Assembly (NCBI RefSeq): GCF_029223285.1
Contig: NZ_JARHUJ010000009.1
Coordinates: 1-64,000, forward strand
Direction: 5' to 3'
DNA from: Paraflavitalea sp. CAU 1676
GTDB taxonomy: Bacteria; Bacteroidota; Bacteroidia; Chitinophagales; Chitinophagaceae
DNA length: 64,000 nucleotides
Shown here one piece after another: positions 9,163 through 55,645 of the stretch (position 1 is the stretch's first letter; every line of letters begins with the position of its first letter). Under the pieces are notes generated by a model. That model did no database searches. It saw nothing but the letters and a program-made list of their open reading frames with translations, and was not told the origin of the DNA. The translations under genes and the position numbers were made by a program.

Positions 9163-10056
9163 CTAATCATGACTTAAGCTCCGCCACAGGTAAAAGACCA
9201 GGTAGCTTTCCCAGCCCTTGAACTTTTTGAACAAGGGGGCCATCTTGCTAAGGTCTTTTTTGTCATCGATCAACTGGTGGTTCAGCAGTGCGTTCAGTAA
9301 CCCAACATCGCCATGGGGAATGGCCTGCATTTGCTTGAGCGACTTCATGAGTGCATAGTTGGCGGTCCACACGCCAATGCCCCTGATGTTGGTGAGCAGG
9401 GCTACCTGTTCTTCATACGACTTGCATTGTTCAAGAGTTGACCGGCTCACCGATCCGTCGGCAAACAATTGGGAAAGGTGTATCAGGTACTCGGCCTTTC
9501 GGGTAGAGAATTGCAGGTTGCGGAGCTGCTCAACCGTAACGTGTTGCAATACTGCCGGTTTGGGGAAAATATGCAGTGTGTGCCGGCCCGATTCTAGCGT
9601 GGTGCCGAAATGTTCTACCAGCCTTCGTTTGAGGGTATAGGCGAAAGTAAGGTTGATCTGCTGGCCGATGATGCTCCAGCACAAGGCTTCGTAGAGATCA
9701 TGAATGCCGATGAGACGGAAGCCTGCATAATCTTGCACCATGTATGAGAGCCGTTTGTGTTTACCCAGCAATTGATAAAAGGGGCTGATGTCGCGTTCCA
9801 GATCGAACCACTCGATAATATATTGTTGCAAGGCTTGCTGAAGCGCCGGGCTGCCATTGTCCGATTCCATGGTCAGGATAAGATGGCTTTCATTGGCTTC
9901 CAGGCTGAAGCCAACGTTTTGCTCATTTATACAAATGGCTTTGGATAGTTTCCCGGGTTCAATAACATGCAGGCAATCGTCGTAGTTGCGGTTGAGGAAC
10001 CACAGGCATTCCTCAAAACTGAACAGGGATGGTTTCGGTATCAGCAAGGGATTCAT
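9163..10056 (-). CDS. DNA-3-methyladenine glycosylase II / AlkA-like DNA glycosylase
   Basis: About 297 residues. It belongs to the HhH-GPD superfamily of base-excision-repair glycosylases, which remove alkylated purines. The helix-hairpin-helix and GPD loop are visible as LLTNIRGIGVWTANYALM followed by AIPHGDVGLLNALL, where the Asp of HGD is the expected catalytic aspartate. The central motif CWSIIGQQINLTFAYTLKRRL is typical of AlkA-type enzymes. The N-terminal ~100 residues form the AlkA-like beta domain. I start at MNPLLIPKP rather than six codons earlier, because a -7-like box (TACTTTTG) ends only four bases before this ATG, which would make the longer start untranscribed. It is a stand-alone gene, convergent with the adhesin locus. 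Confidence 0.85.
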   Translation of the reverse strand: MNPLLIPKPSLFSFEECLWFLNRNYDDCLHVIEPGKLSKAICINEQNVGFSLEANESHLILTMESDNGSPALQQALQQYIIEWFDLERDISPFYQLLGKHKRLSYMVQDYAGFRLIGIHDLYEALCWSIIGQQINLTFAYTLKRRLVEHFGTTLESGRHTLHIFPKPAVLQHVTVEQLRNLQFSTRKAEYLIHLSQLFADGSVSRSTLEQCKSYEEQVALLTNIRGIGVWTANYALMKSLKQMQAIPHGDVGLLNALLNHQLIDDKKDLSKMAPLFKKFKGWESYLVFYLWRSLSHD

Positions 10057-10060
10057 CCGC

Positions 10061-10068
10061 CAAAAGTA
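10061..10068 (-). promoter_or_regulatory. candidate -7 box of the DNA glycosylase gene
   Basis: On the minus strand TACTTTTG fits TAnnTTTG and ends four bases before the preferred ATG at 10056, predicting a nearly leaderless mRNA. No good TTTG is found 19 nt upstream, so support is weak. Confidence 0.35.
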
Positions 10069-10475
10069 CGCCACGGGTCAACACCTGCCCACCCGATTCT
10101 TGCGGCCCGGTTGCAACACATTGGCAACTGCCAAGACATTGGGCTTTCCAGCACACATCCTTCGTCTCTTGTATAGTCTTACAGCACAACGCCATCCATG
10201 TTTGTAACTTCGCGCACAGGCTCGTATCCGATTTGCGTGGTTATCTTAGATCTTACTCATTCAACTTCCTTGCCGTGTATTTTTCTTTATGGTTTCTGCG
10301 CCCGCCCACCTGCCTCCAATGTTTGCCTGCCCACAAACATCTACAAAGCCAACGTTTGTAAGTATTCAGCTGCAGGCGACACCTGTTCGCATCAAAACGG
10401 CCGCCAGAGCTGGGTTTAAAGCACTTTAACAAAATTAGTCTACATCGCCTGTAGGAATTATCGGATAAATCCCTT
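10069..10475. other. intergenic region upstream of the cysteine leader
   Basis: About 400 bp between divergent transcription units. Several 60-110 codon ORFs are open on the plus strand (for example 10198-10419), but none shows a motif, signal peptide or sensible composition. No tRNA-like fold or repeat was recognised. The last bases lead into the cysteine operon promoter. Confidence 0.4.
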
Positions 10476-10483
10476 TATATTTG
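10476..10483 (+). promoter_or_regulatory. -7 box of the cysteine operon
   Basis: TATATTTG is a perfect match to the Bacteroidota -7 consensus TAnnTTTG. Transcription would start at about 10488, with the leader ATG 23 nt after the box. No matching TTTG lies at the usual 19-nt spacing upstream. Confidence 0.6.
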
Positions 10484-10506
10484 TACAGATAAATCGTTTA
10501 GACCAA

Positions 10507-10593
10507 ATGACATTCCATAACCCACATAAAAATTGTTGTTGCTGTTGTTGTCAACACACCAGGGTTATTGGGGTGGGCGATAGCCATTGGTAA
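10507..10593 (+). CDS. cysteine-rich leader peptide of the cysM operon
   Basis: 28 codons, ATG to TAA. The peptide begins MTFHNPHKN, then has six consecutive cysteines (codons TGT TGT TGC TGT TGT TGT at 10534-10551), then QHTRVIGVGDSHW. It ends 108 nt before the cysM ATG and is followed by an intrinsic terminator at 10625-10653. The layout is that of a transcription-attenuation leader. Scarcity of charged tRNA-Cys would stall the ribosome in the Cys run and leave GGTGGG (10572-10577, in the last third of the ORF) free to pair with TCCACC (10628-10633) in the left arm of the terminator. When cysteine is plentiful the ribosome reads on to 10593 and the terminator forms. The ORF and pairings are seen in the sequence; the mechanism is inferred by analogy with amino-acid operon leaders. 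Confidence 0.85.
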   Translation: MTFHNPHKNCCCCCCQHTRVIGVGDSHW

Positions 10594-10624
10594 CAGCTGA
10601 ATATTTAATATTCAACATATTATA

Positions 10625-10653
10625 GGCTCCACCGTCGTGTGGGGCTTTTTTTA
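10625..10653 (+). terminator. attenuator terminator in the cysM operon leader
   Basis: GCTCCAC (10626-10632) pairs with GTGGGGC (10639-10645, one T-G pair) around a CGTCGT loop, followed by seven T. Being upstream of cysM and sharing bases with an alternative pairing partner inside the leader ORF, it fits an attenuator rather than an end-of-operon terminator. Confidence 0.85.
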
Positions 10654-10701
10654 TTTTATACCGTTCAAGTCGCATTGAACACTAACCGTAATACTGAACC
10701 G

Positions 10702-11640
10702 ATGCAAATCCTAACATCAACTGTTATTGATGAAAGGTTACTGGAGGATGCCCGCTTGCTGGGTAATCAAATAGGCAATACACCTTTATACCGGATCACC
10801 AAACTCTTTGCCAAACCCAACGTAACTATATATGCCAAGCAGGAGTGGAAGCAGCTGTCGGGCAGTGTAAAAGCAAGGGCTGGATACAATATCTTCCGGT
10901 CGGCCATAGAGCTGGGGTTGCTTGGCCGCGATAAGATACTGCTCGATGCTACCAGCGGCAATACCGGCATCGCCTATGCAGCGGTGGGTCATAAGTTACA
11001 GGTGCCCGTTACCCTTTGCCTGCCCGAAAATGCTTCAAAAGAAAGAAAGGAGATACTGCAATCGCTGGGCGCCGAAATCATTTTCACTTCAAAATACGAA
11101 GGCACCGACGGCGCACAGGCCGTAGCAAAAGAACTGGCAGCCGCCAATCCCGATAAATATTTCTACGCCGACCAATACAAGAACGATAACAATTGGAAAG
11201 CTCATTATAATGGTACGGCATTCGAGATCGTCAAAGATCTGCCCGCCATCACGCATTTCGTGACCGGCCTGGGTACCAGCGGCACATTTGTTGGTACAGG
11301 CAGGCGACTCCGTGAGTTGATACCCGGCATACACCTTACCTCATTGCAGCCCGATAATCCACTGCATGGCATGGAAGGCTGGAAGCATATGGAAACAGCC
11401 GTAGTGCCCACTATTTACGACACCACCGTGGCCGATGAGAACCTCGAAGTAGGTACCGAAGAGGCCTATGAAATATTGAAGGCCGCTTACCAATATGAAG
11501 GTCTGCTGTTAAGTCCCTCGGCAGCGGCCAATCTCGCCGGCGCCATCAAGGTGGCTGAGCGAATCGATGCCGGCAACATCGTTACCGTATTCCCCGATAA
11601 TGCCGACAAATACAGTGAAGTAATTAAAAAACTACTTTGA
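10702..11640 (+). CDS. cysM: cysteine synthase, CysM type (sulfur-carrier dependent)
   Basis: 312 residues; PLP-dependent fold-type II enzyme. The PLP lysine is Lys57 in SGSVKARAG, and the phosphate-binding loop region reads DATSGNTGIAYAAVG. The glycine-rich GLGTSGTFVGTGRRL and the C-terminal SPSAAANLAGA are typical of the cysteine synthase family. The neighbours (a JAMM peptidase, a ubiquitin-like sulfur carrier and a MoeZ-type E1) indicate that it uses a protein thiocarboxylate as sulfur donor, like mycobacterial CysM, rather than free sulfide. Whether the amino-acid substrate is O-phosphoserine or O-acetylserine cannot be told from sequence alone. I start at the ATG giving MQILTSTVID; the in-frame GTG 21 codons earlier lies inside the terminator stem. 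Four-gene operon under a Cys-codon leader. Confidence 0.88.
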   Translation: MQILTSTVIDERLLEDARLLGNQIGNTPLYRITKLFAKPNVTIYAKQEWKQLSGSVKARAGYNIFRSAIELGLLGRDKILLDATSGNTGIAYAAVGHKLQVPVTLCLPENASKERKEILQSLGAEIIFTSKYEGTDGAQAVAKELAAANPDKYFYADQYKNDNNWKAHYNGTAFEIVKDLPAITHFVTGLGTSGTFVGTGRRLRELIPGIHLTSLQPDNPLHGMEGWKHMETAVVPTIYDTTVADENLEVGTEEAYEILKAAYQYEGLLLSPSAAANLAGAIKVAERIDAGNIVTVFPDNADKYSEVIKKLL

Positions 11641-11641
11641 G

Positions 11642-12079
11642 ATGATCACCATTCTACCTACAGCAAAGGAATTAATGTTACAGGATGCGGTACAGGCTTT
11701 TCCCGATGAATGCTGCGGTTTCTTATTCGGCGAAGAAGATGCGGCCGGCAACCGGACCATCAGCAACATACAGGTTGTCATCAACGCAAAGGAAGGTGAT
11801 AAACGCCGCCGCTTCGTGATCGCTCCATTGGATTATATGAAAGCCGAGCAATTTGCCGAAGAGCAAAACCTGCTGCTGTTGGGCGTATACCATTCGCATC
11901 CCAATCATCCGGCCATACCATCAGAACATGACCGGGTCGCCGCACAGCCGTTTTTTTCTTATGTCATTATCTCGGTATTGGAAGGTCGCGTTGGCCCCAT
12001 CAGGTCCTGGCGCCTTAATGACGATTCACAATTCGACGAAGAAACAGTAGGAGCCGCTGAACTGACCACCGGCGCCTGA
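11642..12079 (+). CDS. mec: JAMM/Mov34 metallopeptidase acting on the sulfur-carrier protein (Mec-like)
   Basis: 145 residues. A complete JAMM zinc site is present: Glu23 in PDECCGFLFG, and the HxHPx(n)SxxD signature as His84, His86, Ser94 and Asp97 in YHSHPNHPAIPSEHD. In Mycobacterium the Mec peptidase releases cysteine from the CysO-Cys adduct; in Pseudomonas, QbsD trims two residues from the carrier QbsE to expose Gly-Gly. Both jobs could apply here, because the carrier encoded next door ends in Gly-Gly-Ile-Ala. The ATG is one base after the cysM stop, so translation is probably coupled. The family is certain; the exact substrate is inferred from the operon. Confidence 0.87.
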   Translation: MITILPTAKELMLQDAVQAFPDECCGFLFGEEDAAGNRTISNIQVVINAKEGDKRRRFVIAPLDYMKAEQFAEEQNLLLLGVYHSHPNHPAIPSEHDRVAAQPFFSYVIISVLEGRVGPIRSWRLNDDSQFDEETVGAAELTTGA

Positions 12080-12127
12080 ACATACAGTAAAGAATCATTT
12101 CATCAACAATAAACAACATCAACGATC

Positions 12128-12406
12128 ATGGCAACAGTAATCATTCCCACACCATTACGAAAATTCACCAACAACACGGCACGTCTCAACATACAAGCCG
12201 ATACCATAGAAAATACCGTTAGCGAATTAACGCTTAACTTTCCGGAACTAAAGAAGCATCTGCTCGATGATAAAGGGCAGATCCGGTCATTCGTCAACAT
12301 CTTCGTCGGTAACGATGATATCCGTAACCTGCAACAAGAGAAAACACCTGTGCAGTCAGATACAGTGATCAGCATTGTGCCTGCTATCGCCGGTGGTATA
12401 GCCTGA
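12128..12406 (+). CDS. cysO: ubiquitin-like sulfur carrier protein (CysO/ThiS/MoaD family)
   Basis: 92 residues with a beta-grasp pattern: MATVIIPTPLRKFTNN, a central NTVSELTLNFPELKKHLLDD helix region, RSFVNIFVGNDDIRNL, and the C-terminal SIVPAIAGGIA. The MoaD/ThiS/CysO families end in Gly-Gly, which is adenylated and thiocarboxylated. Here two extra residues, Ile-Ala, follow the Gly-Gly, so a peptidase must remove them first; the adjacent JAMM enzyme is the natural candidate (compare QbsE, which ends Gly-Gly-Cys-Phe). Length and the RSFVN/GNDDIR region are closer to CysO than to ThiS. It would deliver sulfur to CysM. Confidence 0.87.
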   Translation: MATVIIPTPLRKFTNNTARLNIQADTIENTVSELTLNFPELKKHLLDDKGQIRSFVNIFVGNDDIRNLQQEKTPVQSDTVISIVPAIAGGIA

Positions 12407-12476
12407 GTGGCCTGCCATCCGCACCATTAACCCTATGGCTGCCGCATGCATACATTCATCATTCAATCATGAAACA

Positions 12477-13640
12477 ATGAGCACACATTCCACCATAACC
12501 TTTTCCAAAGAAGAACTGGCCCGTTACAACAGGCATATCATCATACCCGAATTTGGACTCGAAGCCCAGCAAAAACTTAAGGCCGCCAAAGTGTTGATCG
12601 TTGGCTCTGGCGGGTTGGGCAGTCCTGCCTTGTTGTACCTGGCAGCTGCCGGGGTAGGTACAATCGGTATCGTAGATTTCGATGTGGTCGACGACAGTAA
12701 TCTTCAGCGCCAGATATTGTTTGGTGTGGAATCCGTAGGGAAACCCAAAGTAGAAGCTGCCAAAGCGCGCCTGCTGGCACTCAATCCGCACATCAATATC
12801 ATCCTGCACAATACCCAGCTCACTTCGCAGAATGCGCTCGACATTCTGAAAGATTATGACCTGGTGGCAGATGGAACCGATAATTTCCCCACCCGTTACC
12901 TGGTCAATGATGCAGCTGTATTGCTGGGCAAGCCCAATATATACGCCTCCATCTTCCAGTTCGAAGGCCAGGTAGCCGTATTCAACTATACCAACAAAGA
13001 CGGTGTATTGGGTCCCAACTACCGTGATCTGTATCCCACACCGCCGCCACCAGGCCTGGTGCCCAGTTGCGCAGAAGGTGGTGTACTTGGCGTATTGCCC
13101 GGCATCATCGGCAGCCTGCAAGCACTCGAAGTGATCAAAGTGATCACCGGGGTAGGGGAGCCGCTGGCCGGCAGGTTCTATATCTTCGATGCGCTCACAT
13201 TCGAGAGCCGCACGTTCAACATCTCCCGCCGCGACGATAATCCGCTCAACGGAAAGAATCCGTCTATCACAGCGCTGATCGATTACGAACAGTTCTGCGG
13301 TGTGAAAGCAGTTGAGAAACCCATCAAAGAGATCACAGCCAAAGAACTCTACGACTGGCAGGTAAAAGGCGAAGCCTTTCAGCTCATCGATGTACGTGAG
13401 CCGCACGAATACGATATTGTGAACATTGGCGCCGAACTGATCCCGCTGGCTACTGTGGCCGACAATGCCGCTAAGTTCAATCGCGATACCAAAGTAGTGG
13501 TGCATTGTAAGATGGGTGGCCGTAGCGCCAAAGCTATTCGTGAATTGGAAGAGAAGTTTGGGTTTACCAATCTGTACAACCTCAAAGGAGGCATCCTGGG
13601 GTATATCGACGAGGTACAGCCCGAGCTAACGAAGTACTAA
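12477..13640 (+). CDS. moeZ: MoeZ-type E1 activating enzyme with C-terminal rhodanese domain
   Basis: 387 residues in two domains. Residues about 5-245 form a ThiF/MoeB adenylation domain with the nucleotide loop VGSGGLGSPALLYLAAAGVG, DNLQRQ-like DDSNLQRQ, and the catalytic-cysteine region PPPPGLVPSCAEGGVLG. Residues about 285-385 form a rhodanese domain whose active-site loop is CKMGGRSAK. The two CxxC zinc motifs of E. coli MoeB are absent, as in mycobacterial MoeZ, which also shares the DYEQFCGV linker. MoeZ activates CysO with ATP and supplies the thiocarboxylate sulfur via rhodanese persulfide. I start at MSTHSTITFSKEEL; the upstream in-frame ATG adds 14 residues of no family character. 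Last gene of the cysteine operon. Confidence 0.88.
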   Translation: MSTHSTITFSKEELARYNRHIIIPEFGLEAQQKLKAAKVLIVGSGGLGSPALLYLAAAGVGTIGIVDFDVVDDSNLQRQILFGVESVGKPKVEAAKARLLALNPHINIILHNTQLTSQNALDILKDYDLVADGTDNFPTRYLVNDAAVLLGKPNIYASIFQFEGQVAVFNYTNKDGVLGPNYRDLYPTPPPPGLVPSCAEGGVLGVLPGIIGSLQALEVIKVITGVGEPLAGRFYIFDALTFESRTFNISRRDDNPLNGKNPSITALIDYEQFCGVKAVEKPIKEITAKELYDWQVKGEAFQLIDVREPHEYDIVNIGAELIPLATVADNAAKFNRDTKVVVHCKMGGRSAKAIRELEEKFGFTNLYNLKGGILGYIDEVQPELTKY

Positions 13641-13779: not shown

Positions 13780-13813
13780 AAAGCCTTGGGCATAACTGTC
13801 CAGGGCTTTTTTT
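13780..13813 (+). terminator. terminator of the cysteine operon
   Basis: AAAGCCTTGG (13780-13789) pairs with CCAGGGCTTT (13800-13809, one T-G pair) and runs into seven T. It lies 140 nt after moeZ. Confidence 0.85.
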
Positions 13814-55490: not shown

Positions 55491-55530
55491 CAAATATGTT
55501 GTAACAGTATTATAGAAGCTATTGATCTGA

Positions 55531-55645
55531 CTTATCTGTCTCCAATTTGCATTGGAGCTGGACGTGGCACCTTATCTCGCTTGCGCGCAGACAGGTTGTC
55601 AAGGCTTCATCGGGCCATTTCCCTCAGCCTTTCTTGATAAGAGAT
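55531..55645 (-). promoter_or_regulatory. SAM-I (S-box) riboswitch
   Basis: On the minus strand the 5' core reads CTCTTATCAAG, GCTGAGGGA, TGGCCCGATGAAGCC and GACAACC, followed by AAGGTGCCACGTCCAGC, the classical S-box signature. CTTATC and GATAAG close helix P1. A terminator 40 nt beyond makes it an OFF switch: SAM stabilises P1, frees the terminator and stops transcription of the metB-queF-like-hom genes. Confidence 0.95.

What the first reader, a model, noticed from the sequence alone, without database searches (positions are those of the whole stretch)
10476..13640. Cysteine-codon leader and attenuator in front of a CysO-type (protein thiocarboxylate) cysteine operon
A 28-codon ORF with six consecutive Cys codons lies between a perfect -7 box and an intrinsic terminator upstream of cysM-mec-cysO-moeZ. 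Bases 10572-10577 inside the ORF can pair with 10628-10633 of the terminator left arm, giving a classical antiterminator/terminator choice set by where the ribosome stops. Amino-acid attenuation is well known for trp, his, thr, ilv and leu, but I know of no described Cys-tRNA-sensing attenuator for the CysM/CysO/Mec/MoeZ pathway in Bacteroidota. It would link sulfur-carrier-based cysteine synthesis directly to tRNA-Cys charging.
Basis: partly seen in the sequence, partly recalled or inferred. Interest (0 to 1): 0.9.

Follow-up and report, generated by a model that had tools for sequence, protein, structure and literature searches.

The report
Cysteine-sensing switch before cysteine genes
A short gene with six cysteine codons in a row, followed by a transcription stop signal, sits before a cysteine-making operon and very probably lets the cell switch that operon on when cysteine runs short; the same device stands before the same genes in many families of the phylum.

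Summary
Window 10507-10593 encodes MTFHNPHKNCCCCCCQHTRVIGVGDSHW; a TATATTTG box lies upstream and an intrinsic terminator (10624-10652) lies between this ORF and cysM-mec-cysO-moeZ.

Of 44 non-redundant Bacteroidota cysM loci with readable upstream DNA, 41 have a Cys-run ORF followed by a terminator. In a phylum sample, 13 of the 16 families with an orthologue have a Cys leader (12 with an intrinsic terminator). The terminator covaries (0 of 500 shuffles). The segment that pairs with its left arm is rewritten between lineages yet fits its own arm (1 of 20,000 stratified permutations as good).

Best explanation: classical ribosome-mediated transcription attenuation at Cys codons, controlling sulfur-carrier cysteine synthesis. 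In the window alone the antiterminator pairing is no better than chance; only conservation makes it credible. There are no expression data.

Prior art: poly-Cys leaders in Actinobacteria and a predicted Cys attenuator before cysS in Rhodobacterales. The kind is known; this phylum and pathway were not found described in the library searched. Some relatives also carry Trp, Phe/Tyr and Ile/Val leaders, and Cys leaders before siroheme synthase.

The parts
10476..10483 (+). promoter -7 box TATATTTG (Bacteroidota-type TAnnTTTG; consensus recalled)
   Evidence: Sequence; TAnnTTTG within 60 nt upstream of the leader ATG in 27 of 35 aligned leaders, 1.3 expected from mononucleotide shuffles
10507..10593 (+). 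leader ORF, MTFHNPHKNCCCCCCQHTRVIGVGDSHW
   Evidence: homologous leaders
10534..10551 (+). six consecutive Cys codons (sensor)
   Evidence: relatives; among 66 leaders the Cys frame is strictly richest in 29 and tied in 36
10572..10585 (+). antiterminator 5' strand: GGTGG (10572-10576) and AGCC (10582-10585)
   Evidence: Fold of the transcript cut before the terminator right arm; GGTGG nearly invariant in the family; cross-lineage complementarity
10625..10633 (+). GGCTCCACC: antiterminator 3' strand, shared with the terminator left arm
10624..10652 (+). intrinsic terminator (hairpin 10624-10647 plus U-run)
   Evidence: nine pairs in the family alignment, five with changes on both sides, 0 of 500 shuffles reach the covariation score
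10702..11640 (+). cysM (PLP-dependent cysteine synthase, CysM/CysK family)
11642..12079 (+). mec (JAMM metallopeptidase)
12128..12406 (+). cysO (ThiS-like sulfur carrier, ends ..PAIAGGIA)
12477..13640 (+). moeZ (ThiF domain plus rhodanese)
13780..13809 (+). terminator-like hairpin after the operon
   Evidence: consensus scan only

Best explanation
A ribosome-mediated transcription attenuator that senses cysteinyl-tRNA. RNA polymerase starts just after the -7 box and a ribosome translates the leader ORF. With enough Cys-tRNA the ribosome reaches the stop codon, 14 nt past GGUGG (region 2), covers it, the terminator hairpin forms and transcription ends before cysM. When Cys-tRNA is short the ribosome stalls on the Cys run, whose last codon ends 20 nt before region 2; region 2 is free and pairs with the terminator's left arm, the terminator cannot form and cysM-mec-cysO-moeZ is transcribed. 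Shown here by comparison: the ORF, its Cys run, the terminator, their order and spacing, and the kept complementarity across lineages. Inferred: translation of the ORF, stalling on uncharged tRNA-Cys, read-through, and the identity of the signal.
For: (1) Cys-run ORF plus terminator before cysM in 41 of 44 Bacteroidota loci, background rate far lower. (2) Phylum sample: of 43 genomes with an orthologue, 22 have leader plus terminator directly before cysM, 6 a Cys leader without a conserved intrinsic terminator, 15 none directly upstream. In 14 of these 15 another ORF ends 0-108 nt before cysM, in 9 of them a mec homologue, and 2 of the 15 carry Cys leader plus terminator at the first gene of the operon. 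(3) Terminator covaries: 97.8% of cells paired, 5 pairs changed on both sides, 0 of 500 shuffles reach the score. (4) Region 2 to left arm, 29 representatives that I chose: own pairs average -14.7 kcal/mol against -12.7 when arms are swapped within GC strata, 1 of 20,000 permutations as good (unstratified 0 of 20,000); 13 of 29 singly below z -1.64, Stouffer -7.8. Examples: GGGGGGGCAA:UUGCCCCUCC (L129), GGGGUA:UACCCC (L136), GAAGGGC:GCCCUUC (L128), CCGGAGG:CCUUCGG (L030). (5) Snapshot folding with a ribosome on the last Cys codon: left arm held by upstream RNA 0.63 on average against 0.51 for shuffles (40 shuffle-set means 0.47-0.55), 51 of 66 above their own shuffled median. (6) Spacing in the family: GGTGG starts 18-26 nt after the last Cys codon in 31 of 33 leaders measured and ends 3-26 nt before the stop in 32 of 33. 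(7) The family's model also finds Trp, Phe/Tyr and Ile/Val leaders with terminators before trpE, prephenate dehydratase and ilvD genes.
Against: In the window alone the antiterminator pairing is within shuffled expectation. Singly only 18 of 66 leaders reach p<=0.05. Inside the family region 2 hardly varies and gives no covariation (159 of 500 shuffles reach the score), and in the low-GC stratum that holds the window the swap test is weak (4,292 of 20,000). A protector (1:2) hairpin is not supported by the alignment (57% of cells paired), and with no ribosome the left arm is still held at 0.46, so termination without translation is not explained. At equilibrium the full leader prefers the terminator, so the antiterminator must win kinetically. 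Some leaders pair poorly (L140, L072, L073). In most distant GC-rich leaders the stop lies 15-43 nt past region 2, so a ribosome at the stop need not cover it there. No transcript, ribosome or growth data.
Confidence: 0.86

Rival explanations
1. Cys-run leader controlling Rho-dependent termination or translation start rather than an intrinsic terminator, as proposed for actinobacterial leaders.
For: Six phylum orthologues of one family (L120-L125) have the Cys run just before the stop codon, no conserved intrinsic terminator, and RNA after it with C over G (C/G 1.4-3.2 against a median of 1.25, range 0.7-2.4, for terminator-type leaders). The detector gave single hairpins in L123 and L124 only.
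Against: The window and most relatives have a covarying intrinsic terminator with a U-run between leader and cysM, and the strand complementary to its arm is the one that is kept fitting.
Confidence: 0.06
2. The poly-Cys peptide itself senses metal or redox state, and the terminator responds to the peptide rather than to charged tRNA.
For: Poly-Cys peptides can bind metals (general knowledge); a peroxiredoxin gene is the first gene of one such operon.
Against: The residues after the run change freely between lineages while region 2 complementarity is kept; the controlled genes make cysteine; leaders of like build for other amino acids stand in the same family.
Confidence: 0.04
3. Chance ORF over a TGT-rich repeat plus a constitutive terminator; no regulation.
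For: Other five-Cys-codon sites exist in the genome, mostly under opposite reading frames; window pairing alone is within chance.
Against: Recurrence before orthologous operons in 41 of 44 loci and 13 of 16 families, with interrupted runs that keep Cys codons (CCCTCCC, CACCCACTC, CRCWCRCC) and not the DNA repeat.
Confidence: 0.02

Closest known systems
trp/his/thr-type ribosome-mediated transcription attenuators
   Same: Leader ORF with a run of regulatory codons, antiterminator strand overlapping the ORF, intrinsic terminator before the biosynthetic operon.
   Different: Regulatory codon is Cys; protector hairpin not supported in this family.
uORFC-8-2 motif (Rhodobacterales, cysS; PMC8632094, passages read)
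   Same: Predicted Cys-codon attenuator with an intrinsic terminator.
   Different: Stands before cysteinyl-tRNA synthetase, two Cys codons, other phylum; predicted only, as here.
Actinobacterial poly-Cys leader ORFs (PMC1262725 and PMC4633059, passages read; Canestrari 2020 Mol Microbiol not held, seen only as cited in PMC13236596, PMC9094748 and PMC9031893)
   Same: Short ORFs with Cys runs before cysteine or sulfur genes; cysteine-responsive control reported in M. smegmatis.
   Different: No conserved terminator hairpin, leaderless and described as translational by the citing papers; here an intrinsic terminator and a CysM/Mec/CysO/MoeZ operon.
SAM (S-box) riboswitch
   Same: RNA control of sulfur genes; one is in this window at 55529-55643.
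   Different: Ligand-binding aptamer; no match at the leader.

Membership tests
Ribosome-mediated transcription attenuator (trp/his type) | Short leader ORF with a cluster of codons for the pathway's product | tested here: met
   product assignment by homology
Ribosome-mediated transcription attenuator (trp/his type) | Intrinsic terminator between leader ORF and first gene | tested here: met
Ribosome-mediated transcription attenuator (trp/his type) | Alternative antiterminator that competes for the terminator left arm | tested here: met
   Met for the set across lineages; within chance for the window alone and weak in the low-GC stratum
Ribosome-mediated transcription attenuator (trp/his type) | Protector (1:2) hairpin that favours termination without translation | tested here: inconclusive
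   Predicted in the window and in L129, but 57% of cells paired in the family and no covariation
Ribosome-mediated transcription attenuator (trp/his type) | Read-through rises when the cognate tRNA is uncharged | not testable with these tools
   Needs RNA or reporter data
Mycobacterial poly-Cys leaderless sORF attenuators | Leader ORF starts at the transcript 5' end | tested here: inconclusive
   The -7 box starts 22-36 nt before the ATG in 26 of the 27 leaders that have it, 12 nt in one, which suggests a short 5' UTR; start sites were not measured
Mycobacterial poly-Cys leaderless sORF attenuators | No conserved terminator hairpin (as stated in PMC1262725) | tested here: not met
   Conserved intrinsic terminator; L120-L125 lack a conserved one
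uORFC-8-2 motif | Located upstream of cysS with two tandem Cys codons | tested here: not met
   Upstream of cysM, six Cys codons
Rfam riboswitch, T-box or leader families | Covariance-model match at the leader | tested here: not met
   None at gathering score; below it only isrJ (E 0.079) and ncS54 (E 0.77)

The most novel reading that the evidence does not exclude
This is an ancient cysteine attenuator of sulfur-carrier (CysO) cysteine synthesis, older than the split of most families sampled from the GTDB phylum, in which the Cys-codon sensor has been kept while terminator and antiterminator sequences were rewritten together many times, units were doubled in tandem (L072, L073, L158, L119, L237), one family exchanged the intrinsic terminator for another exit (L120-L125), and Cys leaders were placed before other sulfur genes: siroheme synthase in four genera of the family, a rhodanese gene and a peroxiredoxin gene at operon starts.
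Probability: 0.4. Interest if true: 0.75.

Novelty: new member of a known kind. Interest (0 to 1): 0.6.

Why it matters
If right, charging of tRNA-Cys directly sets expression of the protein-thiocarboxylate route to cysteine in many families of Bacteroidota, a phylum for which the papers I could search say little about amino-acid attenuation. It gives a specific, cheap test (3' ends at 10648-10653 against cysteine supply) and a phylogenetically deep set of leaders for studying how terminator and antiterminator co-evolve. With the leaders of Actinobacteria and Rhodobacterales it suggests, as inference, that Cys-run leaders arose more than once.

Tried and rejected
Protector hairpin (region 1, 10517-10523, with GGGTTAT 10562-10568): predicted in the window, not supported by the alignment. 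Within-family covariation of the antiterminator: none, because it is nearly invariant. Duplex energy against shuffles for each of 66 leaders: 18 at p<=0.05 and 9 at p<=0.01, so I used arm-swapping instead. A fixed pattern (four Cys codons, GGTGG, CYCCAC) over 395 phylum genomes matched only 5; the matches in G663 (inside a long Gly-rich frame) and G408 (no leader-like ORF or terminator seen) are not leaders, so the pattern is too narrow to show distribution. Model R1 over 294 family genomes: 192 have a match at E<=0.01, but only the 21 above 55 bits are strong, and these all lie before cysM; I read 18 of the weaker ones (L180-L197), which are other amino-acid leaders, L180, the cysM leader of G267 (L185), or plain hairpins; only 10 candidates per genome were scored, so absence means little. 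Siroheme synthase: 31 loci read (L180 and the 30 best of the places; the other places were not fetched). Cys-rich ORFs in the 300 nt upstream that look like leaders: L180, L198, L199, L200, L201, L203, L204, that is 7 of 31; the detector put a terminator behind L180, L198, L199 and L203 only. Further formal hits (L208, L211, L214, L218, L223, L226) I took for coding sequence or chance. An earlier reading of L203 and L204 as coding was wrong and was mended. Non-Bacteroidota orthologues: of 16 (L033, L035-L037, L039, L040, L042-L051) none has a convincing leader; formal hits in L036, L043 and L047, and L036 and L037 end in RRCPSCRC, which is unclear. L041, recorded as a Gammaproteobacteria MAG, does have one. 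Paralogous cysK control L077-L081: none convincing; one formal hit in L077 inside a long frame. L154 and L156 gave formal hits that fall in the upstream mec gene. Riboswitch or T-box at the leader: no match. Literature: searches showed no Cys attenuator in Bacteroidota; most subscription papers are not held, and PMC9723704 (passages) mentions leader-peptide candidates without naming them in the text I saw.

Rows dropped: 13 ids that repeat a genome held under another id; L034, L038, L076 and the G142 place (contig ends at the gene). Alignment A1 (35 rows) leaves out L068 (script did not find its U-run), L022 and L032 (no leader), L027, L029, L030, L041, L072, L073 (divergent or double), uses L067 for L019, and was made before the phylum sample.
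Full report
What is there. The nearest long ORF upstream runs the other way (9163-10074, minus strand), so the terminator does not serve an upstream gene: it lies between a promoter-like box and cysM. CysO is nearest to M. tuberculosis CysO among solved structures, and CysM nearly so to M. tuberculosis CysM.

Conservation near by. cysM orthologues were collected from named contigs (51 loci of several phyla) and from 294 genomes of the family (loci for the best places only, the rest being paralogues near 35% identity). After removing duplicate records and loci cut at the gene, 44 Bacteroidota loci with upstream DNA remained (one genome, G284, gives two); 41 have an ORF with at least 3 Cys in 7 codons followed by a terminator before cysM. 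The three exceptions are L011 (a degenerate CC..C leader that keeps GGTGG and the terminator), and L022 and L032, where another ORF ends within 22 nt of cysM. The peptides vary (MNQAFAHSTCCCCCCKQAMVIMVEDDLL, MHCCCTCCCKQQTTAAIVVDNRQR, MLLNVNHIITCCCCCCTAKGYLLGGHSNE), so this is not simple DNA identity. A TAnnTTTG box precedes 27 of 35 aligned leaders (1.3 expected).

Conservation far away. In 395 genomes of the phylum, 43 have an orthologue at E <= 1e-75. Of these, 22 carry leader plus terminator directly before cysM (three of them, L134, L140 and L143, with short or broken Cys runs), 6 (one family, L120-L125) a Cys leader without a conserved intrinsic terminator, and 15 none directly upstream. 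In 14 of those 15 another ORF ends 0-108 nt upstream, in 9 of them a mec homologue. I read up to 5 kb upstream of all 15: 2 have leader and terminator at the first gene of the operon, tandem units before a peroxiredoxin gene in L237 and one unit before a rhodanese gene in L242; the other 13 have none that I recognised. Counted by family, 13 of 16 have a Cys leader, 12 with an intrinsic terminator. Genome names are withheld; the Mec of L144 is very close to PDB 2kcq (E 7e-80), which I recall as Salinibacter ruber. The detector gives 31 hits in 450-nt cysM upstream regions of 49 loci and 8 rows elsewhere in 935 kb.

Structure. The terminator covaries strongly within the family. The antiterminator strand GGUGG is nearly invariant there, so the alignment cannot test it. 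Across lineages it changes together with the terminator arm: with 29 representatives, swapping arms inside GC strata reaches the observed mean energy in 1 of 20,000 permutations; the effect is clear in the high- and mid-GC strata (13 and 48 of 20,000) and weak in the low-GC stratum that holds the window (4,292 of 20,000). A snapshot of the RNA with a ribosome on the last Cys codon and the right arm not yet made shows the left arm held by upstream RNA more than in shuffles (0.63 against 0.51; 30 of 42 above their shuffled median in the window's family, 21 of 24 outside, as I grouped them). With a ribosome at the stop codon the value is 0.13, part of which is built in because the covered RNA is removed; with no ribosome it is 0.46.

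Geometry. In 33 family leaders with GGTGG, it starts 18-26 nt after the last Cys codon in 31 (8 and 13 nt in the others) and ends 3-26 nt before the stop in 32, most often 14 nt, so a stalled ribosome leaves it free and a finishing one covers it (ribosome footprint recalled). In most GC-rich distant leaders the strand starts 0-10 nt after the run and the stop lies 15-43 nt past it; there a long hairpin holding the Cys codons is predicted (L129), and re-forming of that hairpin behind the ribosome may replace covering. This is inference.

Cys codons and not a DNA repeat. Among 66 leaders the Cys frame is strictly richest in 29, tied in 36 and lower in 1. Interrupted runs such as CACCCACTC, CRCWCRCC and CCAACC keep Cys codons where the repeat is broken.

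Setting. The family's model also picked up leaders for Trp, Phe/Tyr and Ile/Val; one downstream gene of each sort was checked and is trpE-like, prephenate dehydratase-like and ilvD. Cys leaders also stand before siroheme synthase in 7 of 31 loci read, from four genera, 4 of them with a terminator. So the Cys leader belongs to a set of attenuators in these bacteria.

What is known. PMC1262725 (passages) describes Cys-run leader ORFs in Actinobacteria without terminators. PMC4633059 (passages) reports ribosome occupancy of one in M. smegmatis. Canestrari 2020 (not held; cited in PMC13236596, PMC9094748 and PMC9031893) reports cysteine-responsive control. PMC8632094 (passages) predicts a terminator-type Cys attenuator before cysS in Rhodobacterales. 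PMC9723704 (passages) notes leader-peptide attenuation candidates in Flavobacterium without naming cysteine. Searches showed no Cys attenuator in Bacteroidota and none for a CysO operon there. The kind is known; the member, pathway and spread appear new within that library.

Verdict. The mechanism is the ordinary trp-type one, very probably right, with cysteine as the signal. The breadth and the co-rewriting of the two hairpins make it more than a single curiosity. What is missing is any measurement.

Noticed in passing
window 12128-12406; L009, L011, L012, L015, L016, L018, L019, L020, L023, L034: Many CysO homologues here carry extra residues after PAIAGG (own: IA), unlike M. tuberculosis CysO, whose solved chain ends in GG; in at least ten loci the CysO reading frame runs on into MoeZ (junction read in six of them), so a protease, perhaps Mec, would have to cut after AGG.
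   Followed up: partly
L120-L125 upstream of cysM: One family has the Cys run directly before the leader stop codon, no conserved intrinsic terminator, and G-poor RNA after it, in four of the six with a TTACCG..CGGTA inverted repeat: a possible Rho-type or translational variant.
   Followed up: partly
L180, L198, L199, L200, L201, L203, L204: Cys-rich leader ORFs before uroporphyrinogen-III methyltransferase (siroheme) in four genera of the family, several ending in a Cys run at the stop codon (e.g. ..CKRCCLCCC); in L180 a flavodoxin-like frame follows, which I read as sulfite reductase flavoprotein.
   Followed up: partly
L186, L189, L190, L191, L192, L194, L187, L195: Leader ORFs rich in Phe/Tyr, Trp or Ile/Val followed by terminators before matching biosynthetic genes in the same family.
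   Followed up: partly
L072, L073, L158, L119, L237: Two Cys leader-terminator units in tandem before the operon.
   Followed up: partly
window 55529-55643, minus strand: SAM riboswitch, a second sulfur-related RNA control in the same window.
   Followed up: no
L041:2485-2637: A contig recorded as Gammaproteobacteria carries the cysM gene with a Cys leader and terminator; transfer or mis-binning.
   Followed up: no
L030:1469-1740: Similarity to Mec residues 1-34 runs straight into CysO residues 33-90, an apparent deletion or assembly error.
   Followed up: no
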